Positions 369 through 15,002 of a DNA stretch of 64,000 bases are shown one piece after another; positions within the stretch are counted from its first letter, which is position 1, and every line of letters begins with the position of its first letter. The position numbers and the translations under genes are program-made. Source of the stretch: Clostridia bacterium (GTDB lineage: Bacteria > Bacillota > Clostridia > Christensenellales > Aristaeellaceae); NCBI GenBank assembly GCA_017431005.1, contig JAFRLY010000016.1, positions 52,675-116,674 of the forward strand, in the 5' to 3' direction. A model generated the notes under the pieces. That model had not been told where the DNA came from. It saw nothing but the letters and a program-made list of their open reading frames with translations, and did no database searches.

Positions 369-1775
369 TTATTCGTAGCAATCGCCCAGCACGACGTAGG
401 CGCCGTTCAGACCCAAAGGCGTGTTGTAATCGTCAATGATGTTCCAGTTGGTGCCTCTCGCTCCGGCCCTGCCCGTGTTGATAGTCAGCTTGCCGTTGAC
501 GAAGGTGACAATGTAATTGCCCTGGAGCGCGTCACCCATGACGTAGATCGTGTAGGTGCCGCGGGTTTCGCCGGCTTCACGTACCAGCTTGTAGTTCACG
601 TAGTCGTTGCCGATCAGGCCGTTCACGATCGCGGTAAGCTCAGGATCCTTAGCGCCGGTCATCTTCTGCAGGTCTCTGGCTGTCACGGTGACAGGCTTCG
701 GATTTACCTTCAGGATGATTTCCTTTTCAACTGTACCGTTCGTTTCTGTCTCCGCCCGGACGATAACTTTGATCTCGCCGACATTCTTGATCGTGGGAAT
801 CTTATCCGTCCAGGTCTTTCCGCCGTCGATACTGTAGGTGATCTTTGCGTCCGGAATGCTGCACTCAATATGCGGCTCGTGATCTTTTCCGTCATAGACG
901 CCTTCGTAACCGGTTGTGCCTTCCAGGGTAACCAGGCTGCGCTTGGTCATCTTACCGAAGACGACCAGACGGCCGTTGGTTTCAGCGCTGGCGCAGGTGG
1001 AAAGTGCCAGGATCTTATCTGCGGTAGCCGCCAGTTCAGGATCATAGTGCAGCACCACCGTGCCAACGCCAACACCATCCAGGCCGCCGCTGGCCAGGAA
1101 AGCTTTCACTTCTGCCGCGCGGTCTCCCACGTTATAAATGTTGTTTTCGTAAGCATCCGTTGTGGCCACAGCAAAGAATTTCACGTCATACGCGCCGGTC
1201 TTTGTGACCACAATGGCATCCCGGTGCGCGTTGTAGTAGGTCACATCCCGGAAGCTGTCCAGCCGGCCGAACATCGCGCCGTTATCCATATGATGGCCGT
1301 AGATCAGGTTATAGCTGTCAGAGAAGTCTCCGCTGTTCTCTGCCGCCAGATAGATTGCGCCGGTCAGGGAGCTTTGCTTATAGATGTCATGCCAGGCATA
1401 GTAGAGGTCATCCGGACCCTGCAGCACCGGATAGTCGATGCTGGTATCATAGACCGTCAGCCAGGCTCTGTAGTCCTCATTGATGCCGCTCAGGCCGTCC
1501 GCATTCAGCGGTGTTTCGTAATCTTCAATGAGTTCCGGTTTGTACTGCAGCAGATCCCAGGCGCTGGTATAGGCCTTATACTCTGTATTGAAGGTATCCG
1601 CAATTACGTAGCCGGAATAGATCACCAGCACAGCCGCCAGCAGACCGGAAGCCAGGGAAACCACGCTGTTACCGGCTGCCAGTACTGTCTTCAGCACGGC
1701 TTCCACCACGGTTTTTTTCGCGGCCTCATGCGCCACCGGATTCATAAGCTCGTCCGGTAAAATTCTTTTTGCCAT
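369..1775 (-). CDS. Class B sortase with C-terminal MBG-type beta domains
   Basis: A transpeptidase of the SrtB type, expected to join the PTG-signal pilins encoded just upstream. Residues 1-60 hold a cytoplasmic start and one membrane segment (about 37-59). The catalytic domain (about 95-280) carries His161 in YGHHM, Cys261 in LSTCAS and Arg269 in the GRLVVFGK context. About residues 290-450 form an added module with VNPKPVTVTARD and NYIVTFVNGKLTI motifs, typical of bacterial MBG (mucin-binding/Ig-like) repeats. Ordinary SrtB proteins are about 250 residues and end after the catalytic Arg, so the extension is unusual. The gene follows the SipA-like gene by 12 nt and is the last of the pilus cluster. 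Confidence 0.88.
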   Translation of the reverse strand: MAKRILPDELMNPVAHEAAKKTVVEAVLKTVLAAGNSVVSLASGLLAAVLVIYSGYVIADTFNTEYKAYTSAWDLLQYKPELIEDYETPLNADGLSGINEDYRAWLTVYDTSIDYPVLQGPDDLYYAWHDIYKQSSLTGAIYLAAENSGDFSDSYNLIYGHHMDNGAMFGRLDSFRDVTYYNAHRDAIVVTKTGAYDVKFFAVATTDAYENNIYNVGDRAAEVKAFLASGGLDGVGVGTVVLHYDPELAATADKILALSTCASAETNGRLVVFGKMTKRSLVTLEGTTGYEGVYDGKDHEPHIECSIPDAKITYSIDGGKTWTDKIPTIKNVGEIKVIVRAETETNGTVEKEIILKVNPKPVTVTARDLQKMTGAKDPELTAIVNGLIGNDYVNYKLVREAGETRGTYTIYVMGDALQGNYIVTFVNGKLTINTGRAGARGTNWNIIDDYNTPLGLNGAYVVLGDCYE

Positions 1776-1787
1776 CTGTCTTACTCC

Positions 1788-2801
1788 TTACAGATTGTTC
1801 CTTCGGGCAATTGTGATGACCGTGCCCAGAATTTCCTCCTGCTTCACCGGGCCGAAGAACCGGCTGTCAGCGCCGCCGTTTCTGTGATCCGCCAGTACGA
1901 AGCATTCTCCGGCCTTCAGCGTCAGAGGATATTCAGTAAAGCCTACGTACATCGTCGTTGGGGAGAAAATGTTGCTTTCAATCATCGAGTTTCCGTTAAT
2001 GATGAGAGAACCGTTTTCTGTTATTTCAACGGTATCACCGGCCGTTGCAACAACCCGGCATACAAAGGTCTGAGTGCCGGCCTTGCCTCTCAGGCCAAGC
2101 TTTACAGATGCATTGTAGAGGAGGCGGAAAAACTTTTCCTTCAGCCCTTCTCCCTCAACCGCCTGAGCCGGTGGAATATCCGGAACCTTCTGCTCATTTG
2201 ATACCGCAGAGACTGAAGTGTTTATTTCGCCGTCTTCATTCATCTGCGCTGCTTGTTCCTCTGCCTGTTCAGCGTCATATTCCTGTAACGAAATTGCCTC
2301 TCTTTGCAGCACGATGATGTCCTGAGCCCGGACGTCTTTATCCAGCCTGTAGAAAACCAACAGGTCGCCGCTGTCAATCCGGGGATACATATCGTCGTTC
2401 GGCATGTTCATGACACCGATGATCTGATAGAACAGGATGTATACCACAGCGATCAGGAGCAGCGTACGGATCAGCAGGTTTCGGAACCCCCGAAGCAGTC
2501 TTTTTTTCTTCCTGGCTTTCAGTGCGGCTTCCTTCGCTGCTGCTTCCTTGCTTGCCTCCCGCCGCTGGCGTTCTTCCTCTGCAAGCTTCTGTTTTTCCGC
2601 TTCCCTGCGCCGATTCTCTTCCTCCTGTCGTTGGGCTTCTGTCAGCTGCGGCTGCAGCAGCTCCGCGATCTGTTTTGCGAACTGCTGCACCTGCTCCGGT
2701 GATTGGCCGGTCGAGGTGTTATTTACGGATACTTCAGCATCAGGTATGCTTTGCTCTGTCTGTGCGGAGACCTTCTGCTGCATATTGTTGTCTTCTGTCA
2801 T
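1788..2801 (-). CDS. SipA-like pseudo signal peptidase, pilus assembly
   Basis: A type I signal peptidase fold protein that lacks both catalytic residues. The ATG at 2801 has an AAAGGA site six bases upstream; an upstream ATG at 2840 lacks one. Residues 1-100 are Gln/Glu-rich and probably coiled, followed by a membrane segment (about 106-130). The box that should read S-M-x-P reads D-D-M-Y-P, with Asp137 in the Ser position. The box with the catalytic Lys before RV reads FVCRVV, with Cys248 in the Lys position. Box E (ADHRNGGADSRFFGPV) is intact. SipA of Streptococcus pyogenes FCT pilus loci is known for the same kind of Ser/Lys loss and is needed for pilus polymerisation. Its position between pilins and a class B sortase supports that role. 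There is a low-complexity insert at about 168-240. Confidence 0.82.
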   Translation of the reverse strand: MTEDNNMQQKVSAQTEQSIPDAEVSVNNTSTGQSPEQVQQFAKQIAELLQPQLTEAQRQEEENRRREAEKQKLAEEERQRREASKEAAAKEAALKARKKKRLLRGFRNLLIRTLLLIAVVYILFYQIIGVMNMPNDDMYPRIDSGDLLVFYRLDKDVRAQDIIVLQREAISLQEYDAEQAEEQAAQMNEDGEINTSVSAVSNEQKVPDIPPAQAVEGEGLKEKFFRLLYNASVKLGLRGKAGTQTFVCRVVATAGDTVEITENGSLIINGNSMIESNIFSPTTMYVGFTEYPLTLKAGECFVLADHRNGGADSRFFGPVKQEEILGTVITIARRNNL

Positions 2802-2957
2802 ATCTTGTCCTTTCTTAGGGACTTCAGGATGGCTTTTCATTTATCTGCACACCTTCAGGCAAACTGCCTTCAGGTCGTTGATCACGATTTTGGTGGGTCC
2901 GTCTGACAGACCAGTATTTGTGAGATACAATAATATTAGTAGTTGTTTTTTCTGATG

Positions 2958-3052: not shown

Positions 3053-4435
3053 TTATTCTTCTTCCTTCTTGCTGCGCTTGGTAGCCAGAATGATGAACAG
3101 GACGCAGCCGGCCGCGAACATCGCGAAGTAAGGAGCGAACCGCAGAACAACACCGGTGGGAGAAATCTGCTCTAGGTTGTTCGTCCACTTGAGGCCGACG
3201 TTCGTGTCTTTAGTAGTATAGGCAATTGTTCCGCCAATACCGGTTTCATCGATCTTCTTATTGGCCGTGGCAGCCTGAGCGGTAGCAAGCGTTTGTCCCG
3301 CTGCTTCAGTTACTTCACTGCTTACTGTGTAGCCGAGGCTTTCTTCAACCATTTCCTTTACTTTGACATACACATTGTTCGGAACAGTGATCTTAACCTG
3401 ACCGCCGTTCGGAATGGTGATAGCTCCAGTATAGGTTGTTGATGCAGCATCAGATGCAAAAATCTTCCAACCATCTGTAGGGGCAGTAACCACAGCGCCA
3501 GTAGTGCCGACTACTTCAACCTTAAATGCAGTGCCTGCAAGTGTCGTAGCACTGTCATTTCCCTCTCCAGTCGGTTCCGTATAGAACACAGTTAGATCAA
3601 AGGGGAACTGATAAGTAACATCACCCATGCTACCGGTGACTTCCTTGGTTACGATAATCACGTTGGTTGTATTATCATCTTTGTGAGGATCCTCAGGATC
3701 TTTTACATCTTCACCAAATGTATTGGTAAAGTTGTCTGTTTTGCCACTGTAGGAAATAAGATTATTGCTGTTAACAGTCAAAACAGAAGTCAGACTGTTG
3801 TTAACAACAGCGTTGGTTACCTTATATACGGGAGTCTCGCCGGTGGCCGCTGTATTTGCAACATAAATATCGATGTACTTAATAACAGCATCTTTACCGT
3901 TTGTCGCTTCACTCTGGAAGCCAACAGTAGACTGTTCAGCAGTGAGAGCAGCCTGGGTCAGTGTATAACGGTAGATACCTGCATGAGGCCAGGTAACGGC
4001 ACTCACATCAACTTTAATCTCTTTAGTTGTGTCCTCAGTTCCGGCATCAAATGCCACCGTCAGTTCTGAACCAAGCGCAACATTAGTCGTACCATAGATC
4101 AGCTTTGCTCCAGTAGGACCTTCAAAAACAGGAACTTTATTTCCGTCCGATGCATCACTTGCAGAAATAGCCGTACCAGCTGCAAGCGTATACTTGAAAG
4201 AAGTTGCAGCAAAACCGGCAAGATCTGCATTCATGTCAACGATGGTTTTCACAACAAACTGATCAAAGTATGTTTTTGTTGTTGCGTCAGCTGCATCAGT
4301 ATAATGTTCATAAACGTTGGTCGTATTATCTGCTGTACCTTCGTTATATCCACCGGTCGGAGGTTCAGTAGCAAAAGCACTTGTTATTGTCAGTAACATA
4401 ACTGCAGCAAGTGCAATAGCAAGAATTTTCTTCAT
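3053..4435 (-). CDS. FctA/Spy0128-like pilin with PTG sorting signal
   Basis: A 460-residue secreted pilin. The signal peptide is MKKILAIALAAVMLL through SAFA. Two beta domains follow. The first (about 40-240) has a Lys in FVVKTIV and ends with Asn in NFTNTF. The second (about 258-422) starts with VTKEVTGSMGD and ends with Asn in KWTNNLE. These Lys and Asn positions match those used for intramolecular isopeptide bonds in Spy0128-type pilins. The C-terminus is a cell-wall sorting signal: SPTGVV at about 425-430, a hydrophobic span, then KRSKKEEE. PTG-type signals are substrates for class B pilin sortases, in agreement with the sortase downstream. The base composition is clearly more AT-rich than that of the flanking housekeeping genes. 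Confidence 0.85.
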   Translation of the reverse strand: MKKILAIALAAVMLLTITSAFATEPPTGGYNEGTADNTTNVYEHYTDAADATTKTYFDQFVVKTIVDMNADLAGFAATSFKYTLAAGTAISASDASDGNKVPVFEGPTGAKLIYGTTNVALGSELTVAFDAGTEDTTKEIKVDVSAVTWPHAGIYRYTLTQAALTAEQSTVGFQSEATNGKDAVIKYIDIYVANTAATGETPVYKVTNAVVNNSLTSVLTVNSNNLISYSGKTDNFTNTFGEDVKDPEDPHKDDNTTNVIIVTKEVTGSMGDVTYQFPFDLTVFYTEPTGEGNDSATTLAGTAFKVEVVGTTGAVVTAPTDGWKIFASDAASTTYTGAITIPNGGQVKITVPNNVYVKVKEMVEESLGYTVSSEVTEAAGQTLATAQAATANKKIDETGIGGTIAYTTKDTNVGLKWTNNLEQISPTGVVLRFAPYFAMFAAGCVLFIILATKRSKKEEE

Positions 4436-4561: not shown

Positions 4562-5989
4562 TTATTCTTCCTCTTCCTTGCGGCGGCGAGTGAAGAACAC
4601 GATCAGCAGGGCAATACCGCCAACCATCATTGCGAAGTACGGAGCAAACCGCAGAACAACACCCGTGGGAGAGATATTGTCCAGTTTGTTCGTAACAGTA
4701 AAGGTTGTATTCGCTGTATCATCCTTGAAGGAAGCAGCAGTCGTACCGGTAGTAGCAGTTTCCTTATTCACAGGCGTATCAGCAGCGATACCAAAGTTCG
4801 TGGCAGTAACCTTGTACTGGTTCTCAGTGTTGTTGAATTCGTTCGCGAGAATGCTTACATTATCAGTAGTGGAGATGACGGAAGGAACACCGATCAGGTT
4901 GATCTTGCCTTCGTGCTTGATGGCGAATCCATCAGCAACAGTCGCGGTCGCAGAACCCAGGGTCTTCGTTCCAGCAGTAGCAATCAGCTGAGCTTTCGTT
5001 TCGGCCACATTCTTGCTTCCGTTATTCGTCACACTGTAGGTAAACGCAGCGCCGGGAATAGAGTTGGAAATATCCGTCTGGAAGGGGAAGTAGTTCGCCT
5101 TGTCACCCATATCACCGGTAACTTCCTTGGCAACGGTCACGTTGTATGTGGTATACAGATCATAGTAATTCGGCAATTCGCTGGGAGTCGTGAACTTTGT
5201 CTTCTGGGTGTCAGGATCATCCTCATCCCCGGCGGGCTTGGTCGGATCATCAGGAGTTACGTCAGCAGGATCCTCTTCTTCGAAATCATCGTCACCTTCA
5301 GGATCTCCGAAACCGGTAGTCTTGCCTTCCTTATCGTCCTTGTTGTCCTCGCTGCCGTCACTATTCGGGTCGCCGCTGTTGTCTACATCAGGATTATCGT
5401 CAGTGTTAGGATCCAGAATTACAGCGCCAGGAACTTCGCCGGTATTCTTTACATAAACATCAAGCACCAGGGTCTTATCCTGAGTTCCTACTTCAGTCAC
5501 ACCAACATTGTTCTTCTGAGTAGTTGAGGTAGTCTGAGTGATGATATAACGATAGACACCGGCAACAACGATGTCATCAGCAGACAGAATCTTGCTGCCA
5601 TCAAAGGACACGGTAACCTTCTTGGTCACAGCAGCTTTACCGTCAGCCGCAGCCTGAACCAGCTTGTGGTCAGAGCTGAAGTTAATACCGAAATCAACGG
5701 AACCAGTTGCAGTAGTCAGTCCGAAGCCGCGCATATCGCCGGCTTTTACGGTAACCTGGTTGCCGGCATGGTCCTTCACAGTAGCTCCGGCCTCTCCGGG
5801 CGTAATAGTATATGTGTAATACAGGTTGGGCTCATATACCTTGGAGGCCTCAACATTTTTGAAATACAGGGTCTGGGTAATCGGTACGTCAAATGTTGTG
5901 TCTACAGTTGCCGGATCAGCTAATGCAGATACGGTTCCCAGCACCATCATGGCAGCCAGGAGCAGGGCCAGAAGCTTTTTCACATTCAT
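4562..5989 (-). CDS. FctA/Spy0128-like pilin with acidic linker and PTG sorting signal
   Basis: A 475-residue pilin. I place the start at the ATG at 5989, which has a perfect AGGAGG site; an in-frame ATG 20 codons upstream has none. A signal peptide ends near LGTVSALA. Domain 1 (about 28-190) contains Lys in TLYFKNV and the VYRYIITQ strand. Residues about 195-280 are a Asp/Glu/Pro-rich linker. Domain 2 (about 285-435) starts with VTVAKEVTGDMGD and ends in VTNKLD, the Lys/Asn pattern of isopeptide pilins. The sorting signal SPTGVVLRFAPYFAM is nearly identical to that of the next gene, so both are probably handled by the same sortase. The position first among the pilins and the strong ribosome site fit a major subunit. 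Confidence 0.85.
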   Translation of the reverse strand: MNVKKLLALLLAAMMVLGTVSALADPATVDTTFDVPITQTLYFKNVEASKVYEPNLYYTYTITPGEAGATVKDHAGNQVTVKAGDMRGFGLTTATGSVDFGINFSSDHKLVQAAADGKAAVTKKVTVSFDGSKILSADDIVVAGVYRYIITQTTSTTQKNNVGVTEVGTQDKTLVLDVYVKNTGEVPGAVILDPNTDDNPDVDNSGDPNSDGSEDNKDDKEGKTTGFGDPEGDDDFEEEDPADVTPDDPTKPAGDEDDPDTQKTKFTTPSELPNYYDLYTTYNVTVAKEVTGDMGDKANYFPFQTDISNSIPGAAFTYSVTNNGSKNVAETKAQLIATAGTKTLGSATATVADGFAIKHEGKINLIGVPSVISTTDNVSILANEFNNTENQYKVTATNFGIAADTPVNKETATTGTTAASFKDDTANTTFTVTNKLDNISPTGVVLRFAPYFAMMVGGIALLIVFFTRRRKEEEE

Positions 5990-6054
5990 AGTTTTCTTTC
6001 CTCCTAAAAATTTTTGAGAATCTGATTTTTGACTGCCAAACCATTCCATTCAGT

Positions 6055-6117
6055 TCAGCAAATGTATATGTTGTCGGCCGGGGGTCTGTCCCTCGCCGTT
6101 CCAACCTTCCGTCGCAT
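6055..6117 (-). CDS. Possible 20-codon leader peptide
   Basis: A short reading frame beginning MRRKVGTARD, with an AAAGGAG ribosome site seven bases upstream, ending in TGA. It lies in the 198-nt gap upstream of the first pilin gene. There is no coding evidence beyond the ribosome site, and it may be fortuitous. Confidence 0.2.
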   Translation of the reverse strand: MRRKVGTARDRPPADNIYIC

Positions 6118-6187
6118 TGACGATCTCTCCTTTCATTTGGTTCGCTCGTCTGGGTACCTATATATCGTTTAGTACTTTGCGACTGAT

Positions 6188-6982
6188 TCAGGCCTGGTTC
6201 TTCTCTTCCAGCCTTTCCGGACTTCTGCTCCAGTTCGGAACCTCGACCATCAGTCTCCCGTTGGTCCTGGTCACCCGGAAGCGGAAGGGATGTTCCTTCG
6301 CCCATTGTTCGTTTCCTTCGGCCAGCTCCTGCCATCTGCTCCATTGGGAAATAAAGTTTTCATGCAGCAGCTCTTCGGCTTCAAGACGAACTTCCTTTGC
6401 CCGTTCAAAGTCCGTGTACTCGCCCAGGTAATAGCGCTGGCCCTGAAGGCCGATGCTTACCCGGTACTTGTTTCCGGAGCGGGAAATCCCGCGGAAGCCG
6501 CTGGTGTTGTCGGACCGGCTTTTCCGGTACTTCAGCCATTCCACGCACGTACCGTCCACAAAGTGGAGCAGATTGTTCACATGGGTGTTCAGCTCCTGCC
6601 TCCGGCAGCCACAGCTGGTGGTGTTTCCGGATACCAGGCTGTCCTGGGGAATCTCCACTGTGTTACCGCATTCGCAGCGGCACAGCCAGTATGCGGAGCC
6701 TTTCCTGTCCCGCCGTTCCGTTACCCGGACGGCTGTCAGGCGTCCGAATTGCTGTCCGGTCAGATCCTTCAGGGTGGTGTGTCCGTGGCGGGTTTTGCAT
6801 CCGCAGCTCCAGATCCGGTCTCCCTTCAGATCCGAGGATCTGACGATCCGTTCATTTCCGCAGTCACACCGGCAGAGCCAGGCGCTGCGTCCGTGAACCT
6901 TCTCAGCGGGTTCCACCGCCGTCAGCATACCGAAGCGCTGGCCGGCGATGACAGGATTCGTTTCTGTGCGCATCTGCGTCAC
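6188..6982 (-). CDS. AP2-domain protein with two zinc-ribbon repeats
   Basis: A 264-residue protein of unknown cellular role. Two copies of a module of about 50 residues (about 12-62 and 73-125) share GQxFGxLTAV, WLCRCDCGN or WLCRCECGN, and a closing SCGC, which resembles a four-Cys zinc ribbon. An AP2-type DNA-binding domain follows (about 157-205: SGFRGISRSGNKYRV, YYLGEY, AKEVR). AP2 plus zinc-ribbon proteins are known from phage and homing-endonuclease-like contexts and as presumed DNA binders. The start is either the GTG at 6982, which overlaps the stop of the upstream gene by four bases, or the ATG at 6973. The overlap suggests translational coupling. Being cytoplasmic and DNA-binding inside a surface operon, it may be a local regulator or a hitch-hiking gene; I cannot decide. 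Confidence 0.75.
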   Translation of the reverse strand: MTQMRTETNPVIAGQRFGMLTAVEPAEKVHGRSAWLCRCDCGNERIVRSSDLKGDRIWSCGCKTRHGHTTLKDLTGQQFGRLTAVRVTERRDRKGSAYWLCRCECGNTVEIPQDSLVSGNTTSCGCRRQELNTHVNNLLHFVDGTCVEWLKYRKSRSDNTSGFRGISRSGNKYRVSIGLQGQRYYLGEYTDFERAKEVRLEAEELLHENFISQWSRWQELAEGNEQWAKEHPFRFRVTRTNGRLMVEVPNWSRSPERLEEKNQA

Positions 6983-8829
6983 ACTCCAACGGACTTAAAG
7001 CTGATCTTCTCTTCCCCGTCGGTCGTTTCCGCGCGGCCTGTGGTTTCCATCGGCTTGGGCTCGTCGTTCACGTAGCGGAAGGTATGCACCTCATGATCCG
7101 CGTCGGTTTCCGGCTCGTCCACGAGGATTTCCACTTCGTAGGCGCCGCTTCCGGCGTAATCCACGCCGTCAGCGATGATGGACAGCTGTACCATGTAGAA
7201 GCTGTGGATCTCCTGGTTTTCTTCCAGGTCCAGGCTCTCCACCGTGTTCTCCAGATACTGCTCGTAGGACGCACCGCCGGTGGTCAGGGAAGCGGTCACT
7301 TCAGCGTTGACCGGAATGCCGGCATCCGGTGCGAAGCGGACGATCAGCTTCAGACCCTGGGCAGCCAACGACACGGTCTTTTCAACCTTGCCGTTCACCA
7401 GCTCAACGGGCAGCTCTTCCGGCACTTCCTCAGCGAGTTCCTCTTCGGTTTCCTCACCGGGGATTTCTTCCTCGGAGGTTTCTTCCTCGTCCGTTCCCTC
7501 GTCGGAAACTTCTTCGTCAGTCACCTCTCCGTCCGGTCCCTCTTCGGTGGCTTCCCCGTCGGTCAGCTCTTCCTCCGCAGGTTCTCCATCGGTTTCTTCT
7601 TCAGCGTTTTCCCCTTCAGGCAGTTCAGCTTCGCCGTCCTGTCCTTCGGTCTCTTCCGCTTCGGTTTCTTCCCCGTCAGTTTCTCCTGCTTCGGCTTCTT
7701 CGGTCATAGCCTCTTCTTCGGCTGCGTCCCCATCGGTCTGCTCCGCGGATTCCTCATCGGTGTTTTCGTCCGCCGGAGTTTCTTCCCCGTCCGGGGTTTC
7801 GGTTTCTTCGCCCGTTGCGGGTTCTTCTTCGCTCAGGATTTCCTCATCCGCCGCGGGTTCGGTCGCTTCCGGTTCCTCTTCCTCAGCGGCAGGCGTTTCT
7901 TCCTCCGCTGCAGGAATCTCAGTTCCGGGTTCCGTCGTTACGGTTTCTTCTTCGGTAACCTCCGGCACGGGCGTTGCCGCCTCAACTTTGGTCAGCTTCA
8001 GGCTGAAGTTTCCGAGCGTGTTTGCTTCGGCGCTGTACACATACAGGAACCAGGTTCCCTCCAGGACCTTCCAGTTCAGATCCAGCGGCTGTTTCAGACC
8101 CTGGTTTGTTTCCGGCTCAAAATGCCTTGTCCGGCTGCCGTCCTGCAGCTCCGCGTCCATGCTGACCGCCAGGCCGTTGGTTTCCAGATGCAGCTCCATG
8201 TTCCACGGGACATCCACCCGGATAATCCACTGATCTTTGGTCTCAGTGAAGTTTCCGCTCACCGTTCCGCCGATCTTCAGCACGGCGTCCGCCTGGATCT
8301 CCTTGGGAGCCTGTGTGGGCTGTTCCGTCGGAGCGGCGGTCGGGGCTGCCGTCGGAGCCTGTGTAGGTGCGGGAGTCGCTGTCGGTTCCGGAGTCGGAGC
8401 TGCTGTCGGCACTTCCGTCGGCGCTGCCGTAGGTTCCGGTGTCGTCGTAGGTTCCGGTGTCGGCGGCGCAGTCGGTTCCGGTGTGGCCGTGGGTTCCGGT
8501 GTGGCCGTGGGTTCCGGTGTCGGTGCCGGCGTGGGAGCCGGTGTTGCCGTCGGAGCCGGGGTGGGCGCCGGTGTCGCCGTAGGAGCCGGAGTCGGAGGTG
8601 TTGTCGGATCCGGCGCCTTGGGTTCCTCGACAGTCTGCACCGTCGCCACCACAATGACGTCCTCGGGCTGGCTTACCTCCTGTTGATTCTGAACTGCGAT
8701 AATCTCCGCATATTCGTCAGAAGGTGGAGCCACTTCTTCTGCCATACCAACCGGGAACGGCGGCAGCAACGCGAAGCAAACCGCAAGGCCTGCCGACAGC
8801 GTCCTGACGCCATTCCATCCTTTTTTCAT
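6979..8829 (-). CDS. Secreted Pro/Thr- and Glu-rich surface protein
   Basis: A 616-residue secreted protein, first gene of the pilus operon. It has a signal peptide (cleavage near VGMAEE), a long Pro-Thr-Ala-Pro repeat stalk (about 72-178), and a beta domain (about 183-285) that resembles pre-peptidase C-terminal domains. A very acidic Glu/Thr-rich stretch (about 290-475) and a C-terminal beta-rich region follow. No sorting signal or C-terminal membrane anchor is present, so it is either released or held non-covalently. The ribosome site AGGAGG lies eight bases before ATG. The left inverted repeat of the invertible segment ends only 31 nt upstream of the start codon, so its promoter must come from inside that segment. 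Confidence 0.75.
   Translation of the reverse strand: MKKGWNGVRTLSAGLAVCFALLPPFPVGMAEEVAPPSDEYAEIIAVQNQQEVSQPEDVIVVATVQTVEEPKAPDPTTPPTPAPTATPAPTPAPTATPAPTPAPTPEPTATPEPTATPEPTAPPTPEPTTTPEPTAAPTEVPTAAPTPEPTATPAPTQAPTAAPTAAPTEQPTQAPKEIQADAVLKIGGTVSGNFTETKDQWIIRVDVPWNMELHLETNGLAVSMDAELQDGSRTRHFEPETNQGLKQPLDLNWKVLEGTWFLYVYSAEANTLGNFSLKLTKVEAATPVPEVTEEETVTTEPGTEIPAAEEETPAAEEEEPEATEPAADEEILSEEEPATGEETETPDGEETPADENTDEESAEQTDGDAAEEEAMTEEAEAGETDGEETEAEETEGQDGEAELPEGENAEEETDGEPAEEELTDGEATEEGPDGEVTDEEVSDEGTDEEETSEEEIPGEETEEELAEEVPEELPVELVNGKVEKTVSLAAQGLKLIVRFAPDAGIPVNAEVTASLTTGGASYEQYLENTVESLDLEENQEIHSFYMVQLSIIADGVDYAGSGAYEVEILVDEPETDADHEVHTFRYVNDEPKPMETTGRAETTDGEEKISFKSVGV
8310..8605 (-). repeat. Pro-Thr codon minisatellite in surface protein
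   Basis: Tandem degenerate repeats encode PTPAPTATPAP, PTPEPTATPEP and similar units. Such tracts can vary in copy number by slippage or recombination. Confidence 0.6.
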
Positions 8830-8860
8830 CCCTAAGCTCCTCCTTTTTTCGTTTGTTTTG

Positions 8861-8884
8861 TCGCAGAATATCTACTTCTGCGAC
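8861..8884 (+). repeat. Inverted repeat, left end of invertible segment (recombination site)
   Basis: A 24-bp sequence identical to the reverse complement of 10338-10361. It has inner arms TCGCAG and CTGCGA around an 11-bp asymmetric spacer (AATATCTACTT), the form of a tyrosine-recombinase core site. It lies between the pilus operon start codon and a terminator hairpin. Confidence 0.85.
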
Positions 8885-8890
8885 AGTCAG

Positions 8891-8928
8891 AAAAAGGGCC
8901 TCTCCGCTGCATCGGAGAGGCCCTTTTG
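8891..8928 (-). terminator. Strong hairpin terminator between recombinase and pilus operon
   Basis: Arms GGGCCTCTCCG and CGGAGAGGCCC surround a short loop, with T-runs on both strands (CCCTTTTT leftward, CCCTTTTG rightward). It ends the recombinase transcript and, in this orientation, shields the pilus operon from it. Confidence 0.85.
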
Positions 8929-8943
8929 ACGGCTTTTGACGGT

Positions 8944-10050
8944 TTATACGAATTGCTCTGCCAGAAGGTCTATCGCTTTCCGTTTTGTTTCCATCTGACT
9001 GTGGGCATAGATTTCAATTGTGGTTTTTACGGAACTGTGCCCGAGAATGGCGCTGACGGTTTTTACATCCGTGCCGAGCTCCAGCATCCGCGTCGTAAAG
9101 GTATGTCTGAGATTATGGAACCGGATCGGCGGAAGCTCCGCCCGCTGCAGCAGACGCTGAAACCGACGCTGGATGGTCCTGGGATCCGCCGGCTTATCCT
9201 TTTTGCCGAAGATAAAATCCTCCGGCTTGAACAGATCGTTTCTGATCATCAGCAGCTTTTCGATCAGCTGGTCCGGAAGCGGAATCGTACGGAAGGAAGA
9301 AGCTGTTTTAGGCGCGTTAATTACCAAAGCAGTTTTATGATCCTCTTCCTTCACATTCAACCGCAATACGGTCCGCCTGATGGTCATTGTCTGATGATAC
9401 TCATCAATATCCTGCCACTGCAGCCCGCAGACTTCCCCGATCCGCAGGCCTGTATAGAGGCAGAGCTGCACCGCCAGATCCTTTTCCTCAGCGCAGTGCA
9501 TCAGCTTATTCTCTTCATTCTGGGACAGCACCAAGATTTCATATTCCGGCGCAGGCGGAAGGAGGAATTTCATTTCCGGAACCTGGCGCAGCAAATCGTG
9601 ATCTGCCGCCTTCCTCAGCAGCTCCCGCATCAGCTGAAGAATATTCTGAATGCTTTTATCTGCCAGCCCTTTCTCCTTCAGCCAGTCTACAAAATCCAGC
9701 AGCATCTGCCGGTCTATCCTGCCGATTTCTATCATGCCGAAATACGGCAGGATATGCTGATTCAGCATCTGATCATATTTCTGCAGCGTGGATGGCTTCA
9801 GTTTGCGGGAGCATGTATCTCCCCGCCATTCCTTTGCCCAGACACGCATCCGCGGCGTCTGCGGAACAGGATCCCGGAGAAAATCCTGATATTGCATCCG
9901 CTTCTCTGTCAGCTGCTTCTTCACTTCTGCATATTTGGATCCGTAGATGTATCCGTAAATTGCCTTGCCATCGGGTTTTCGGCCGCGAATATAACGGCCT
10001 TCATATCTGCCATCCGCCCGTTTGTAGATGTTCTCTCCATGTTTACTCAC
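8944..10050 (-). CDS. Tyrosine recombinase (site-specific invertase/integrase)
   Basis: A 368-residue tyrosine recombinase. The start is the GTG at 10050, with AAGGGGAAGG immediately upstream; an in-frame TTG at 10068 lacks a ribosome site. The N-terminus (GENIYKRADGRYEGRYIRG and on) matches AP2-like arm-type DNA-binding domains of integrases. A core-binding domain follows at about 60-165. The catalytic domain has Arg in YTGLRIGEV, the HNLRH box, a downstream LGHSS, and the Tyr in IEIYAH. No excisionase or phage genes accompany it. Because the gene sits between two inverted copies of a core-type site, I infer that it inverts the segment that encodes it. Confidence 0.9.
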   Translation of the reverse strand: MSKHGENIYKRADGRYEGRYIRGRKPDGKAIYGYIYGSKYAEVKKQLTEKRMQYQDFLRDPVPQTPRMRVWAKEWRGDTCSRKLKPSTLQKYDQMLNQHILPYFGMIEIGRIDRQMLLDFVDWLKEKGLADKSIQNILQLMRELLRKAADHDLLRQVPEMKFLLPPAPEYEILVLSQNEENKLMHCAEEKDLAVQLCLYTGLRIGEVCGLQWQDIDEYHQTMTIRRTVLRLNVKEEDHKTALVINAPKTASSFRTIPLPDQLIEKLLMIRNDLFKPEDFIFGKKDKPADPRTIQRRFQRLLQRAELPPIRFHNLRHTFTTRMLELGTDVKTVSAILGHSSVKTTIEIYAHSQMETKRKAIDLLAEQFV

Positions 10051-10120
10051 AGTGCCTTCCCCTTTCAATGTTCGTTATCAGCCGTGTGACGGCGTAAGTG
10101 ACGGTAACGTAAAAAGCGAA

Positions 10121-10149
10121 AATATAGCAAAAAACCGAACGTCAATCAA
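10121..10149 (-). promoter_or_regulatory. Candidate recombinase promoter
   Basis: On the minus strand TTGATT (10149-10144), a 17-bp spacer and TATATT (10126-10121) lie about 75 nt upstream of the GTG start. The neighbouring GTTACAAA repeat at 10154 suggests possible autoregulation by the recombinase. Confidence 0.5.
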
Positions 10150-10153
10150 GATA

Positions 10154-10257
10154 GTTACAAATAAGTTCGGGATATCTGCCATGTCTGAAACGTGAAACCC
10201 GAAAAGTGTTACAAAGCCTTAAGTAACCGCTATGTAAGAAATATCAAAAGTTACAAA
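10154..10257 (+). repeat. Three GTTACAAA direct repeats, possible arm-type sites
   Basis: Identical 8-mers at 10154-10161, 10208-10215 and 10250-10257, all in the same orientation, lie in the AT-rich DNA between the recombinase gene and the right inverted repeat. Recombinases with an AP2-like N-terminal domain bind such arm sites. The binding is inferred. Confidence 0.45.
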
Positions 10258-10285
10258 AAAACCCTAAAAAACATGTTTTAATGTA

Positions 10286-10314
10286 TTGACAACAACTTTG
10301 AAAAACAATAAAAT
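10286..10314 (+). promoter_or_regulatory. Outward promoter inside the invertible segment (pilus switch promoter)
   Basis: TTGACA (10286-10291), exactly 17 bp, TAAAAT (10309-10314); expected transcription start near 10321. The same boxes and spacing occur in front of tRNA-Gly/tuf and the fructan operon in this window. It now points rightward into DNA with no forward gene. After inversion it would drive the pilus operon. Confidence 0.75.
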
Positions 10315-10337
10315 CAGTTACGGTAGACAGTGAACAC

Positions 10338-10361
10338 GTCGCAGAAGTAGATATTCTGCGA
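10338..10361 (-). repeat. Inverted repeat, right end of invertible segment (recombination site)
   Basis: A perfect 24-bp inverted copy of 8861-8884 (GTCGCAG, 11-bp spacer AAGTAGATATT, CTGCGA). Identity stops immediately outside these 24 bases on both sides. Confidence 0.85.
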
Positions 10362-10698
10362 TATTTTTTTCAATATTATTGTAAACCTTTGCGTGTAATC
10401 TGGCAATGTATTTTCTGGCTTTTTGATAAAACATATTTACATGTTTATCTTCCTATTATATACATATCTTTATTACAGCACATTTTTTCCGGTAAATTGG
10501 TTTCGCTTTCTGACGGCATGCTGCATTTCCGGGCGTATGTGCGATGAAATGAGTATGCTGCCATAAAACACGCAGAGAGTCTCATTTCAGAGGCTCCCTG
10601 CGCTAACACTTTTCAGTTTATCCCGGTTTTCCGCCTGCGAAGCAGCAGGCTCGCCGCAGAACAGAAAAGCCATATAACAGGCTGATCCGTGCCGGAGA
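10362..10698. other. AT-rich intergenic region beyond the inverted repeat
   Basis: No forward gene is present. In the current orientation the switch promoter transcribes into this stretch. The only structure I see is the hairpin at 10571-10602. Confidence 0.5.
10571..10602 (-). terminator. Hairpin terminator after small secreted protein gene
   Basis: A 12-bp stem with one mismatch (GCAGAGAGTCTC with GAGGCTCCCTGC). On the minus strand it is followed by GTGTTTTAT. It could also stop rightward transcripts from the switch promoter. Confidence 0.5.
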
Positions 10699-11211
10699 TT
10701 ATTCCGCGGCCTGGATGGAAGCCAGGATGATGCTGGCGCCGGTCTTGTCGCCGTCATCGTTCAGAGGTCCGACAGTAACCTCCAGGATATAACCCTGTTC
10801 GGTCGTGAAGGAGCAGCTCATGTTGCCTTCAGATTCATAGGAGATGCAGGGCAGGCCGTTCACCGTACCGGTTTCGATCTCCGTTGCGCCGGCTTCCGCA
10901 ACCTGCGCAGCATACTCTTCAAGGGTCATTCCCTGCATGTTCACATACTGCACGGCAATGGCGTCGCCTTCTTCCGCGACATAATAGCCGATATAGCCGT
11001 TCTCACGGTCTTCATCCGACAGTTCCGCGGCGTTCATGCCTTCCGGAATAAAGATCTTCACGGCAATTTCATCAAAGGTGACAAACTCACCTTTAACGCC
11101 GGCTGCTTCCATCATGGGAGCGATCTGTTCCCAGGTGATGTCACTGTCCGCCAGGGCAGTGCATCCCAGCATCAGACACAGGGTCAGCAACAGAGCAACG
11201 ATTTTCTTCAT
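10699..11211 (-). CDS. Small secreted protein of unknown function
   Basis: A 170-residue protein with signal peptide MKKIVALLLTLCLMLGCTALA. Cleavage is likely at ALA-D; a lipoprotein reading at LGC is possible but less likely. The mature part (ITWEQIAPMM, FVTFDEIAVKIFIPEGM, a central acidic helix, then beta strands to the C-terminus) shows no motif I recognise. The ATG has an AGAGG ribosome site. It stands alone, with a hairpin downstream. Its 3' end faces the OFF-orientation switch promoter, so antisense transcription from the invertible segment may reach it. Confidence 0.6.
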   Translation of the reverse strand: MKKIVALLLTLCLMLGCTALADSDITWEQIAPMMEAAGVKGEFVTFDEIAVKIFIPEGMNAAELSDEDRENGYIGYYVAEEGDAIAVQYVNMQGMTLEEYAAQVAEAGATEIETGTVNGLPCISYESEGNMSCSFTTEQGYILEVTVGPLNDDGDKTGASIILASIQAAE

Positions 11212-11375
11212 GGTACCAGCCTCTTTTCCCCGGGGTTCTTCCCCGGTTACTTTTTTTGGTTGCTGCGTTCAGGCAGCTAAGCCAAAGCGTTTATTATATG
11301 GATCATTGAAAGAAATGCAAGCGAAAGTTACGGCATGTAAAAGGAATCCGCCGTCAGAAAAGCCCGCAGAGATTG

Positions 11376-11406
11376 AAAATGCTGCGGTCCCGGGACGAGA
11401 CCGCAG
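11376..11406 (-). terminator. Terminator of the 11492-13246 gene
   Basis: GCTGCGGTC (11381-11389) pairs with GACCGCAGC (11398-11406). On the minus strand ATTTTC follows. It lies in the 280-nt gap between two secreted-protein genes. Confidence 0.6.
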
Positions 11407-11491
11407 CTGTTCTTTGTTTGTGTGTTTATCGGGAGACAGGGGGTATCCTCTGTGTAATGTAACCATTTTTATGATCCATGATGGTCTGTGC

Positions 11492-13246
11492 TCAGCCGTT
11501 GCCGTTCAGCCCGGCGTCATAGATCAGGTCTTCAATCTGTCCGTTTTCTGCGTTGATCAGCACCTCATACATGCCGTCATGCTCGGTCCAGGCAGGATAA
11601 GGCTCCTGCATCAGGTTCATCCAGGCCTGGTAAATCAGCCGGCCGTCCTTTTCCATGAAATGGTATTCCGGATAATCGTCCTCGGCCCAGAGCATGTCCT
11701 TCTGCGCGTCGGTCAGGCCGAAGGTCAGGGTCACCGTCTGCCTGCCGATCTCCGCCAGCTCCTCCAGGGTGTAACGGCATCTGCTCCGGATGATCTCCGG
11801 GTTCAGGTTCTCCTCAACGTACTCGCAGAGGGAATCAAAGGGCATCTCATAGTTGGAATCCGATTCCCGGGCGATCCGGACCGCTTCAGTGTAGAAGGAG
11901 GTCACCTCATGATCCCGCTTGGTGATTTCCAGCATCTTTTCCAGCTGCGCGATCCCCCATACCGGAGCGGTAAAGGCGTCGGAATCCGCTTTCTCCCCGT
12001 CGTGGGACCAGGCGGTTTTCACGCCGTCCGCGGTCACCTCCGCCGTGTATGTACCCAGCGCCACGCAGAAATCGTTCATCCCGGTCAGGGACAGGGTCAG
12101 GCTGCCGTCTTCTTCCGTGACCTTCCGGGAGAAGAAGGTCAGCATCTCGGGGCGGATGCCGTATCTGTCAAGCAGGGCCTGCTCCGCCTGCCGGATTTTC
12201 AGCCAGCGGGCGGAAAAGGCGGATTCATCGACGGGCAGGGATACCGCTGAATCGTCGCGCGGCGCGGGCTCCCAGTCCCTGAACAGCGTGGAGACAAATT
12301 CCTCGTATTCAAAGGTTTCACCCTGGTATTCCGTATCAACGGGAATATAGATGTCCCCGGGGCCTTCTGCGTATTCGGTGACGCCGTAAGCCGCAGGATC
12401 AAAGCTCTCCACCTTGCTGGCGCCGTATTCCCCGGCTTCCCCGCTGAAGGTAAAGGCCAGGGTGTGCGTTCCGTCGTTATAGGTTTCAAAATCCGCCTTT
12501 ACGGTGCCGGCCGCTTCCGCGATCCGCCCCTTGTCGTCCAGGCGGACCTTCAGCTGTGCCTCCTGCAGGGTGAAGCGGACCGTGGAGCCCAGGATGGCCT
12601 GGGTCACGGTGGTGAAGTCCGCCATATGGGTATGCTCATAGCCGCTCATCCGGTCGTAATCGATCTGGAAGAGGCGGCGGATCATCAGCTGAGCGCCCAG
12701 GTTCATCAGACTGTTCAGGGATTCCGGAACATCCGCCTTTGTCAGCTGAAGCGATACCGTGCCGTCCTCCCCGGTCTGAAGCTTCCCGCTCAGGGTTTTT
12801 TCCCATTCCGGAGCGATGAATCCGGCAAGATCCATCAGCTGGGTCAGGAAGGGAGATTTCCGCAGCAGGGTGTTCTGGGGTTCATCGTCTCCCATGCGGT
12901 AGACGCCGGGATGAAAGTCCTCCATGGCATAGATTTTCCGGTCATTCGCGATGACGGTGAAGCCTGTCAGGCGCTCCCCTTCCGGCCAGGGTGTCAGCAG
13001 TTTCAGCCGCCAGTAAGAGAAGGTTCCGTCCTGTACATATTCCGCTTCCGCCTTCTTGAAGGGATCCTCCCCGTCCAGCGTGAAGGAGGCCTCCCCCTTC
13101 AGGGTCACATTGTCCGTCTGAAACAGCAGGGCTTCCCCGGCCTTTATAATTTCCGTCAGGCGGCTGCCGTCCTCCGCCTGTGCTCCCAGGCAGCAGGACA
13201 GGGTAAGCGTCAGCAGCAGAATCCAGCAGATCAGTTTGTTTCTCAT
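11492..13246 (-). CDS. Secreted protein of unknown function
   Basis: A 584-residue secreted protein. The start ATG at 13246 has AGGAGG seven bases upstream and is preferred over one seven codons earlier. The signal peptide ends near CCLGAQAED. The remainder alternates amphipathic beta strands (TLKGEASFTLDG, VSLQLTKADVP, LTLSLTGMNDF) with a helical C-terminal half. The last 60 residues (EVLINAENGQIEDLIYDAG) resemble the PepSY-like or propeptide-like ends of secreted Clostridia proteins, but I do not assign a family. No sorting signal or C-terminal anchor is present. It is a single-gene unit with a terminator downstream. Confidence 0.6.
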   Translation of the reverse strand: MRNKLICWILLLTLTLSCCLGAQAEDGSRLTEIIKAGEALLFQTDNVTLKGEASFTLDGEDPFKKAEAEYVQDGTFSYWRLKLLTPWPEGERLTGFTVIANDRKIYAMEDFHPGVYRMGDDEPQNTLLRKSPFLTQLMDLAGFIAPEWEKTLSGKLQTGEDGTVSLQLTKADVPESLNSLMNLGAQLMIRRLFQIDYDRMSGYEHTHMADFTTVTQAILGSTVRFTLQEAQLKVRLDDKGRIAEAAGTVKADFETYNDGTHTLAFTFSGEAGEYGASKVESFDPAAYGVTEYAEGPGDIYIPVDTEYQGETFEYEEFVSTLFRDWEPAPRDDSAVSLPVDESAFSARWLKIRQAEQALLDRYGIRPEMLTFFSRKVTEEDGSLTLSLTGMNDFCVALGTYTAEVTADGVKTAWSHDGEKADSDAFTAPVWGIAQLEKMLEITKRDHEVTSFYTEAVRIARESDSNYEMPFDSLCEYVEENLNPEIIRSRCRYTLEELAEIGRQTVTLTFGLTDAQKDMLWAEDDYPEYHFMEKDGRLIYQAWMNLMQEPYPAWTEHDGMYEVLINAENGQIEDLIYDAGLNGNG

Positions 13247-13380
13247 GTCATATCCTCCTCGTTCCAAAGGGTTCGGTTTTATTTTACCATAGATACAGAC
13301 GGAACAGAAGAGCGGAAGCTTCCTGACTGTGAGCTTTTCCCGGCTATCATTTGCATCTGCGAAAGCAATTTGCGGACGAG

Positions 13381-13446
13381 TTTTGCACTTTGCTTCTTTC
13401 TGAAAGTGCTAATTTTGCACTTTCTGCAGTTTTGCAAGTGCAATTC
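13381..13446. repeat. Cluster of TTTTGCACTTT-type repeats
   Basis: TTTTGCACTTT at 13381-13391 and again at about 13414-13424, an inverted AAAGTGC at 13403-13409, and a related TTTTGCAAGTGCA at about 13430-13442. It lies in the 232-nt gap upstream of the 11492-13246 gene and may be an operator cluster. Confidence 0.35.
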
Positions 13447-13478
13447 TGCGGCACATTCGATTAAAAAGCCAATTATCG

Positions 13479-15002
13479 TTACTGGACGGAGTACTTATCA
13501 GCTTCGAGTGTATCCGCTGCGGCTATATTCCAGGTTATTGCCTGTTCATCCCATTTCAGAGCGAGGCCGCTTTCGTTCAGGCACCAGGTCAATCCATCCG
13601 GGAGAGAGGCGGCGGAACCGTCAGAACCCTGCGTTGTTTTCTGCGCTGTCTCCGATTCGGTTTCTGCGACTGTCGTTTCTGTCAGATTCATCCTGTAAAC
13701 CTGATCTCCGAAGGTAAAGGACAGGGATGTAATTCCGCATTCCTTCAGGGTTTCCACACTGGAGACCTCCGCCTGCCATTCGACGGCTTCCTCCGCCGGG
13801 ATCAGATTCAGGGCATTCCCCTCCGTCAGGAAGGCGGAGAAGAGGCCTTCTCCCTCATTCAGCAGGATATTCAGGGCCTCCCCGCCGGCAGTCAGGCGGG
13901 AGACCGGGGAATCCGGAAGCGTATCCAGTGTCAGGAGCTGATCCTTTTCTGTTTCTGCTGCGGTTTCGGCGCTTGTTTTCTTCGCTGCTGAAGCAGTTTT
14001 CTTTGCCGCTGTGCGCCTGGCAGCAGCAGCCTTTTTTGTGCCGGCTGATCTGGTTTTCTTCGCTGCTGCGGCGGGGACGGTATTTGTTGCTTCAGCAGCC
14101 TCCTTCTCTTCTGTCATTGCTGTTTCCTCAGTCAGGTCTGATGAATCCGCAGAAGCGGTTTCGGCATCAGATAATGTTTCTTCCGCTTCCGGTTCTGTTG
14201 TTTCCGGTTCGGCGAGTATGGGACCAGGTTCTGTTTCGGTCTGTTCTTCGGAAGCAATAATCCGGAAAAGCAGGGAATCTTCTGCAAGCGTTATGCCGTC
14301 GCAGCTTTCTTCCAGATACATGGAATAGATTTCTCCGGCTGTCCATTCGGAAGCTTCCGTCTCCCAGCGCGGAACTGTGACTGTTTCCTCTTTTTGAGTT
14401 TCTTCTGTCGAATCCAGGATCCGGATCCGGTATTGGCTGGCCTGAACATCTTCCCAGATAAAGGAGATGATCTCTGTTTCATCCGATATGCTGATTAGCC
14501 AGATTCCGTCTTCCTGCCCGGCCTGGCCCTCCGGGCGCAGGTTCAGAAGCAATACTGCCTGGTTTTCCGCTGCGGGCGTCTCTTCTGCTGAAGGCGCTTC
14601 CGTTTGTGTTTCTTCTGTCGGTGTTCCCTCTGCCGGAGTTTCCTCTAGCGGTATTTCTTCAGTCTGAGTGTTTTCTTCCGGATTGTCTTCAGGAAGCGTT
14701 TCCTCTGTCTCCGGCGTTTCCGTCAGTGATCTTTCGTCCGCCGGAACCGTTTCGGAACCTGTCGGTTCTGTGCCCTCATTCACCGGTTCCTCCGCGGTTT
14801 CAACGGATTCTGTTTCAGCTGGTGCCGGAATGCTTTCCTCCTGCATCTGCTCTTCCGTTGTCTCTTCCGGGCTCTGTCCCTCCGCCGGTTCTGTTTCCGG
14901 AATGATCACGGTTTCCTCAGCTGTTTCCTCTCCTTTTACCGTGCAAAGGCACGCACCGCAGAGCAGCATGACAGCCAGTATACAGGCAAAAATGCGTTTC
15001 AT
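13479..15002 (-). CDS. Secreted Glu/Thr-rich protein with Lys/Ala histone-like segment
   Basis: A 507-residue protein of unknown function. It starts with signal peptide MKRIFACILAVMLLCGACLC, where LCGAC could act as a lipobox. About residues 25-150 are Glu/Thr/Pro-rich and disordered. A beta domain (about 150-255) resembles a fibronectin-like fold (ISFIWEDVQASQYRIRILD). A second acidic stretch follows, then a short highly basic Lys/Ala/Thr segment (about 312-345: KKTRSAGTKKAAAARR and AAKKTASAAKK) like histone H1 tails. A C-terminal beta region (about 350-507) completes it. There is no anchor at the C-terminus. The ATG is preceded by GAGGAGG. Confidence 0.6.
   Translation of the reverse strand: MKRIFACILAVMLLCGACLCTVKGEETAEETVIIPETEPAEGQSPEETTEEQMQEESIPAPAETESVETAEEPVNEGTEPTGSETVPADERSLTETPETEETLPEDNPEENTQTEEIPLEETPAEGTPTEETQTEAPSAEETPAAENQAVLLLNLRPEGQAGQEDGIWLISISDETEIISFIWEDVQASQYRIRILDSTEETQKEETVTVPRWETEASEWTAGEIYSMYLEESCDGITLAEDSLLFRIIASEEQTETEPGPILAEPETTEPEAEETLSDAETASADSSDLTEETAMTEEKEAAEATNTVPAAAAKKTRSAGTKKAAAARRTAAKKTASAAKKTSAETAAETEKDQLLTLDTLPDSPVSRLTAGGEALNILLNEGEGLFSAFLTEGNALNLIPAEEAVEWQAEVSSVETLKECGITSLSFTFGDQVYRMNLTETTVAETESETAQKTTQGSDGSAASLPDGLTWCLNESGLALKWDEQAITWNIAAADTLEADKYSVQ

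What the first reader, a model, noticed from the sequence alone, without database searches (positions are those of the whole stretch)
8861..10361. Self-inverting promoter segment upstream of a pilus operon
Seen: perfect 24-bp inverted repeats (8861-8884 and 10338-10361) with core-site architecture (6-7 bp arms, 11-bp asymmetric spacer) flank a tyrosine recombinase gene and an outward promoter. Known: tyrosine recombinases acting on inverted sites flip the DNA between them, and phase-variable surface genes often use such promoters. Inferred: this is an ON/OFF switch for pilus expression, with the invertase encoded inside its own invertible DNA.
Basis: partly seen in the sequence, partly recalled or inferred. 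Interest (0 to 1): 0.93.

Follow-up and report, generated by a model that had tools for sequence, protein, structure and literature searches.

The report
Self-flipping promoter switch for pili
A stretch of bacterial DNA carries both a promoter and the enzyme gene that most likely flips it, so that a neighbouring set of surface-fibre (pilus) genes can be switched on or off; similar self-flipping cassettes sit beside surface genes and other genes in related bacteria.

Summary
Perfect 24-bp inverted repeats (8861-8884, 10338-10361), the only two copies found in the 3.0-Mb assembly, enclose a tyrosine recombinase gene with its catalytic residues, a strong terminator behind it and, at the other end, an 11/12 sigma-70-type promoter. 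As assembled the promoter points away from the pilus operon (OFF); reversed in silico it ends about 80 nt before the first gene (ON). The layout is a family trait: in 58 of 71 loci of this recombinase family (window included), and in 9 of 9 plasmid loci fetched (seven Enterococcus), the recombinase sits inside its own inverted repeats, against 0 of 31 other recombinase loci. An outward promoter of at least 11/12 occurs in 29 of 58 loci; shuffles average 0.46. Two groups of homologous operons carry the cassette in opposite orientations. No reads were available, so flipping in this species is inferred; strain-level copies in Enterococcus raffinosus all had one orientation. An AP2/zinc-ribbon-type gene accompanies the switch in six loci. 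It works like Salmonella's Hin segment but with a tyrosine recombinase: a new variant of a known kind.

The parts
8861..8884 (.). left inverted repeat / recombination site: 8-bp arms, 7-bp spacer
10338..10361 (.). right inverted repeat / recombination site, same sequence in opposite orientation
8944..10068 (-). tyrosine recombinase (374 aa from TTG; a start at 10050 in the same frame, 368 aa, is preceded by a purine-rich RBS-like run and is more likely); R203, K248, H312, R315, H338, Y348 in the numbering of the 368-aa form
   Evidence: RBS-like run read by eye
8892..8927 (-). intrinsic terminator behind the recombinase gene; in the OFF state it lies just upstream of the operon and would insulate it
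   Evidence: -31.5 kcal/mol, 0 of 200 shuffles as stable, followed by a run of U
10286..10314 (+). outward sigma-70-type promoter TTGACA-17-TAAAAT, 11 of 12; would drive the pilus operon only after inversion
   Evidence: family-wide statistics
10121..10149 (-). candidate promoter of the recombinase itself (TTGATT-17-TATATT with TG, 9 of 12; sites of this score are near chance level); would be present in both orientations
10338..10370 (+). right repeat plus the T-run outside the segment: a terminator-like hairpin that would stop the outward transcript in the OFF state; the left repeat has no T-run outside it
6979..8829 (-). first operon gene: 616-aa protein with a signal-peptide-like start, Pro-Thr repeats and an acidic region
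   Evidence: no Pfam family at 0.001
6188..6982 (-). AP2/zinc-ribbon-type, DNA-binding-like protein (HNH-endonuclease-like PHROG families; no HNH motif seen by eye); companion of the switch in six loci
4562..6049 (-). pilin-like protein ending in an SPTG-type motif, membrane helix and charged tail (read by eye)
   Evidence: similar to the next protein; no Pfam family
3053..4435 (-). pilin-like protein with DUF7601 and the same kind of C-terminal anchor
1788..2840 (-). signal peptidase I
   Evidence: Peptidase_S26 7.9e-18; TIGR02227, above cut-off
369..1775 (-). class B-like sortase with an MBG domain
   Evidence: Sortase 1.2e-9; TIGR03064, 143.9 bits, just below the cut-off of 153.75

Best explanation
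8861-10361 is a self-contained invertible promoter cassette. The tyrosine recombinase encoded inside it acts on the two inverted 24-bp sites and flips the 1,501-bp segment that carries its own gene. In the assembled (OFF) orientation the strong outward promoter points right, into a repeat-plus-T-run terminator-like hairpin, while the pilus operon on the left faces the recombinase's own terminator. After flipping (ON) the promoter's -10 box ends about 80 nt before the first start codon and would read through the left repeat, which has no T-run, past an RBS into genes for a cell-wall protein, an AP2/zinc-ribbon-type protein, two pilin-like proteins, signal peptidase and sortase. The recombinase keeps its candidate promoter in both states, so the switch could flip both ways. 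Shown: anatomy, conservation across the family, opposite orientations at homologous loci. Inferred: flipping in this species, ON/OFF expression, reversibility.
For: Repeats, recombinase with catalytic residues, promoter, terminator, flipped geometry. In the recombinase family 57 of 69 testable loci have an inverted pair of score at least 14 flanking the gene, against 86 of 4,692 pairs of flanks from different loci and 0 of 31 control recombinase loci. Outward promoter of at least 11/12 in 29 of 58 loci, inward in 2, shuffled mean 0.46; 12/12 in 19, inward 0, shuffled 0. Opposite orientation relative to homologous operons: L137 against L115, L131 and L166; L143 against L142, L150 and L153, where L142, L143 and L150 are in one genome. 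Orientation by flanking genes: 24 OFF, 11 ON, 4 OFF?, 2 ON?, 12 both, 5 undecided of 58. L039, the window's sister in the tree (95/82), has the same layout with a 12/12 promoter.
Against: No read data: neither orientation frequency nor flipping could be seen in this species. All strain-level copies found in Enterococcus raffinosus (4 records for one locus, 3 for another) have one orientation. 13 of 71 family loci lack the repeats. The opposite-orientation loci come from different species or are paralogues, only the target flank matches, and the automatic rule files L142 and L143 as 'both', so their state rests on where the homologous operon lies. The T-run asymmetry is only suggestive (at least 5 T on 16 of 41 non-target against 5 of 41 target sides, Wilcoxon p 0.056). 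No transcript is known.
Confidence: 0.88

Rival explanations
1. The segment is a minimal integrative element (integrase plus att sites) that landed upstream of the operon; the repeats are attachment sites and inversion is not its function.
For: The recombinase resembles phage and Tn916-type integrases (PHROG integrase 7.8e-73; best solved relative is an Int protein, 6emy), and related cassettes lie on plasmids and on contigs labelled viral.
Against: Integrated elements are bounded by direct att repeats (recalled); here the sites are inverted and perfect, and no gene but the recombinase lies between them. Outward promoters are kept far above chance, and cassettes abut outward-reading operons in both orientations.
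Confidence: 0.06
2. A relic: the cassette once inverted but is now locked in one orientation in this species.
For: Only one orientation is seen here; E. raffinosus strains also show only one.
Against: Recombinase frame and catalytic residues are intact, both repeats are identical over 24 bp, the promoter is near consensus: no sign of decay.
Confidence: 0.08
3. The true output of the flip is the AP2/zinc-ribbon-type protein, and pili are secondary.
For: In L039 the switch faces an AP2-type gene with no pilus gene recognised beside it. Of ten signal-peptidase loci fetched from relatives that lack the switch, none has an AP2-type gene, and a whole-genome search found no AP2-type match in nine of those ten genomes.
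Against: In five of the six loci with both, pilus or fibre-type genes lie in the same run; 66 of 72 fetched loci show no AP2-type gene.
Confidence: 0.15

Closest known systems
Salmonella Hin / fljBA flagellar switch
   Same: The invertase gene lies within the invertible segment (stated for Hin in a passage of PMC5903667); that the segment also carries the outward promoter is recalled.
   Different: Hin is a serine recombinase (PMC11868660, passage); here it is a tyrosine recombinase with a terminator behind it, and the target is a sortase pilus operon.
Clostridioides difficile RecV switches (cwpV, flagellar and others)
   Same: Same class, tyrosine recombinase, short inverted repeats (21 bp at cwpV), surface target; cwpV is proposed to use a stem-loop with poly-U at the repeat in the OFF state (PMC2784873, passages; PMC5903667, passages).
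   Different: RecV acts on several sites elsewhere in the genome; at cwpV the repeats are only 195 bp apart and transcription starts outside them. Here the recombinase is inside a 1.5-kb segment and the site is found nowhere else in the assembly.
E. coli fim switch (FimB/FimE)
   Same: Tyrosine recombinase, invertible promoter, pilus operon (PMC9993118, start of abstract in search listing).
   Different: 314-bp segment; recombinase genes outside it (the latter recalled).
Haloarchaeal virus phiCh1/phiH1/ChaoS9 invertible tail-fibre module with Int1
   Same: Tyrosine recombinase located centrally within the invertible region (PMC6471424, passages).
   Different: It exchanges tail-fibre gene sequence; no promoter cassette described in the passages seen; archaeal virus.
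Gut inverton group 139 with invertase group 35 in Clostridia (PMC11892184, sections 7 and 8 and passages)
   Same: Tyrosine-type recombinases linked to invertons, 32 of 33 from Clostridia.
   Different: The two group-139 invertons whose coordinates are in the text span about 255 bp, and the invertase is described as nearby. Whether group 35 is this family could not be tested (supplements not available).

Membership tests
invertible promoter (inverton) with site-specific recombinase | inverted repeats flanking the segment | tested here: met
invertible promoter (inverton) with site-specific recombinase | promoter inside, able to reach the target gene after inversion | tested here: met
   sequence level only:
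invertible promoter (inverton) with site-specific recombinase | both orientations observed | tested here: inconclusive
   not testable in this species (no reads); opposite orientations at homologous loci of relatives; single orientation among E. raffinosus strains
invertible promoter (inverton) with site-specific recombinase | expression depends on orientation | not testable with these tools
   needs RNA or reporter data
tyrosine recombinase | catalytic R, K, H-x-x-R, H, Y (motif recalled) | tested here: met
   alignment A1; Pfam Phage_integrase
Hin-type (serine invertase) switch | serine recombinase | tested here: not met
   searches list only tyrosine recombinase/integrase families and short unknowns
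C. difficile RecV-type switch | recombinase encoded elsewhere, acting on several segments | tested here: not met
   recombinase inside the segment; site found only at this segment in the assembly
integrative element (phage / Tn916 type) | direct att repeats bounding the element with cargo | tested here: not met
   sites are inverted and no other gene lies between them
sortase-dependent pilus operon (target) | sortase, pilins with sorting signal, accessory signal peptidase | tested here: met
   the pilin call and the sorting motif SPTG are read by eye, sortase subclass just below its cut-off

The most novel reading that the evidence does not exclude
A large, unnamed family of autonomous flip cassettes exists in Firmicutes: each carries its own arm-binding tyrosine recombinase, terminator and outward promoter inside private inverted sites, and is placed like a plug-in part upstream of different operons (pili, S-layer and LPXTG proteins, capsule-type genes and others), sometimes between two homologous operons so that it alternates between them. 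In pilus-type loci an AP2/zinc-ribbon-type protein made only in the ON state feeds back on the switch as a directionality or locking factor.
Probability: 0.3. Interest if true: 0.8.

Novelty: new variant of a known kind. Interest (0 to 1): 0.62.

Why it matters
The best-studied switches of this kind in Clostridia are those of C. difficile, where RecV works on several short segments (PMC5903667 and PMC2784873, passages). Here the invertase lies inside its own segment of about 1.2-1.7 kb, and the recombinase family was found in 41 of 391 class genomes at E up to 1e-45, own genome included (not all members have repeats). Such cassettes can be found by homology rather than by reads, they predict which operons are phase-variable in uncultured bacteria, and, with its own site and everything apparently needed in about 1.4 kb, each could serve as a ready-made genetic switch. 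The AP2-type companion gives a concrete hypothesis for how a self-flipping switch might be biased.

Tried and rejected
Reads or junctions: no tool offers reads. Strain-level orientation was sought in plasmid records and found uniform (7 of 7 copies of two E. raffinosus loci, one of them only 79-81% identical).

Close relatives of the recombinase in the window's own genus: none better than 2.8e-37 (29% identity) in 44 congeners. The genome-contig scan gave two remote loci only.

IMG/VR: of 80 loci returned 27 were tested; 6 have a flanking repeat, 21 have none. Seven of these 21 have under 150 bp of DNA on one side; L188 and L189 have the family's N-terminal motif and ample flanks and still no repeat. 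No opposite-orientation pair was found there.

Contig breaks as a hint of mixed orientations: 9 of 58 contigs end within 300 bp of a repeat, 2.06 expected; four of the nine are from one genome (G435), so this is only suggestive.

The repeat-plus-T-run terminator as a family rule: weak, so claimed only for the window. Two control loci, L017 and L026, have 15-nt inverted pairs further out; they fall outside the flanks used. Two of the 31 control loci (L005, L007) are the same gene.

Orientation calls and gene lists rest on a longest-open-frame rule of my own, not on a gene caller.

Considered and rejected: serine invertase, trans-acting recombinase, integrative element, chance repeat. One clean clade of repeat-bearing recombinases: not found; the tree needs 14 gains or losses of the label against 32.8 when shuffled.

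Literature: no paper describing this family was found in the ten searches of open-licence PMC papers; subscription papers and supplements were not searchable. Papers were seen as listings, passages or single sections only; none was read whole.

Full report
What is in the sequence. The window holds a perfect 24-bp inverted repeat at 8861-8884 and 10338-10361; its core is found twice in the 3.0-Mb assembly (85% complete), once per strand, with up to 3 mismatches allowed. Each site is itself a dyad: 8-bp arms TCGCAGAA/TTCTGCGA round a 7-bp asymmetric spacer, the shape of a tyrosine-recombinase core site (recalled). Inside lie a 374-aa tyrosine recombinase on the minus strand (Phage_integrase 2.5e-32) with the catalytic set R, K, HxxR, H, Y, a terminator behind it (-31.5 kcal/mol, none of 200 shuffles as stable) and, at the far end, a + strand promoter TTGACA-17-TAAAAT.

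What it faces. To the left, all on the minus strand, is a six-gene run: a 616-aa Pro-Thr-rich protein with a signal-peptide-like start, a 264-aa AP2/zinc-ribbon-type protein, two pilin-like proteins, signal peptidase I and a class B-like sortase. To the right the next gene reads towards the segment. As assembled, the promoter therefore points away from the operon. A script that reversed the segment put the promoter at 8936-8908, reading left, its -10 box ending about 80 nt before the start codon at 8829, with an RBS GGAGGAG in between; in the assembled state that place is taken by the recombinase's terminator. Going right in the assembled state, the promoter meets the right repeat followed by a T-run, scored as terminator-like (three such sites were found in the region, 2.8 expected from shuffles); the left repeat has no T-run outside. 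This is a coherent ON/OFF design, shown at the level of sequence only.

Is the layout conserved? The best recombinase hit among 100 relatives (38% identity, another genus of the family), which is also the window's sister in the tree (95/82), is enclosed by inverted repeats (28 nt, 93%), has a 12/12 outward promoter and faces an AP2-type gene. Searching 391 genomes of the class, 41 have a relative at E up to 1e-45, own genome included. I fetched 60 of the 62 other hits and later 10 more, chosen as close kin of repeat-bearing loci, which favours positives. Of 71 loci with a complete recombinase frame, window included, 58 have a flanking inverted repeat within 1.75 kb and 13 do not. Repeat sequences differ between most loci. 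Controls: 57 of 69 testable loci score at least 14, against 86 of 4,692 pairs made from the flanks of different loci (some of these are kin that share a repeat) and 0 of 31 control recombinase loci. Outward promoters: at least 11/12 in 29 of 58 loci, 2 inward, 0.46 in shuffles; 12/12 in 19, none inward or in shuffles. Nine of nine plasmid loci fetched, of 43 records with a match, have a flanking repeat: seven are Enterococcus (five E. raffinosus, of which three are one locus in three strains, one E. gilvus, one E. faecalis), with one Ruminococcus albus and one Vescimonas; three of the nine pairs are imperfect.

Does it flip? Orientation relative to the flanking genes varies: 24 OFF, 11 ON, 6 probable (4 OFF, 2 ON), 12 with outward genes on both sides, 5 undecided of 58. 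Two groups of homologous operons carry the cassette in opposite orientation: the fibre/pilus-type operon of L115, L131 and L166 (ON) against L137 (OFF), and the helicase-first operon of L143 (ON) against L142, L150 and L153 (OFF), where L142, L143 and L150 are in one genome. L142 and L143 are filed as 'both' by the automatic rule; their state is read from the side on which the homologous operon lies. Against this, 7 of 7 copies of two E. raffinosus loci are in one orientation, only the target flank matches in the opposite pairs, and no reads were available. Contigs break near repeats more often than expected (9 of 58 against 2.06), but four come from one genome.

What it controls elsewhere. 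Pfam on selected target genes (28 proteins) gives a mixture: LPXTG/SpaA, S-layer-homology, ChW and BspA-like repeat and cohesin/dockerin proteins, signal-peptidase and camelysin-like fibre operons, sugar and glycosyl transferases, but also a chemotaxis receptor, a sigma factor, FtsK-like and helicase proteins, a nuclease, radical-SAM proteins and others. Surface functions are common but not the rule without exception. In L126 homologous operons lie on both sides, so flipping would alternate them.

The AP2-type companion. Homologues of the window's 264-aa protein occur in 8 of 51 genomes searched, all chosen because they hold a family recombinase; in six of them (window, L039, L115, L131, L137, L166) the only copy found at E up to 1e-8 lies on the target side of the switch, reading with the operon; in the other two (G373, G436) the copies lie elsewhere. 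It was seen in 6 of 72 fetched loci. Ten signal-peptidase loci of relatives that lack the switch, nine from the window's genus and one from another genus, have neither AP2-type gene nor recombinase; seven of the ten have a recognised sortase, and one is a short contig end. A whole-genome search agrees for nine of these ten genomes; the tenth (G055) has a weak copy on another contig. The window protein itself has no Pfam AP2 match; the label rests on its kin (L137 protein, AP2 6.5e-7, below the curated cut-off) and on PHROG HNH-endonuclease families. That it acts on the switch is a guess worth testing.

Comparison with the known. It works like Salmonella's Hin segment, with the invertase inside its own invertible promoter, but uses a tyrosine recombinase, so it is not a member of that family. 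It differs from the RecV and fim switches by carrying its recombinase inside. A tyrosine recombinase inside an invertible region is known from haloviruses (PMC6471424, passages), there exchanging tail-fibre genes. Ten paper searches found no description of this family; subscription papers and supplements were out of reach. Hence: new variant of a known kind.

Noticed in passing
L126 (G356:C14) 5368-14678: The cassette is flanked on both sides by homologous polysaccharide-type operons (first genes 57% identical), and the repeats extend for 166 nt; flipping would alternate two operons rather than switch one on and off.
   Followed up: partly
L114 and L147: Homologous genes on both sides of the cassette (L114 pair 53% identical and similar to the chemotaxis-receptor gene of L155; L147 pair 59% identical).
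   Followed up: no
L109 and L112: Loci in genomes of different families share the same repeat sequence and 86-90% identical 5' flanks but have different genes on the 3' side, hinting at transfer or target exchange.
   Followed up: no
L155 9237-10232: The recombinase frame ends early and lacks the C-terminal region with the catalytic tyrosine, while its 20-nt repeats are still perfect: a possible locked switch.
   Followed up: no
L183 (Ruminococcus albus 7 pRUMAL02): The cassette sits among five further recombinase genes, two annotated tyrosine-type and three 'recombinase family protein'.
   Followed up: no
window 20712-22424: One long frame joins what look like a pectin methylesterase and an SGNH-type acetylesterase (labels recalled from the sequence, not searched).
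   Followed up: no
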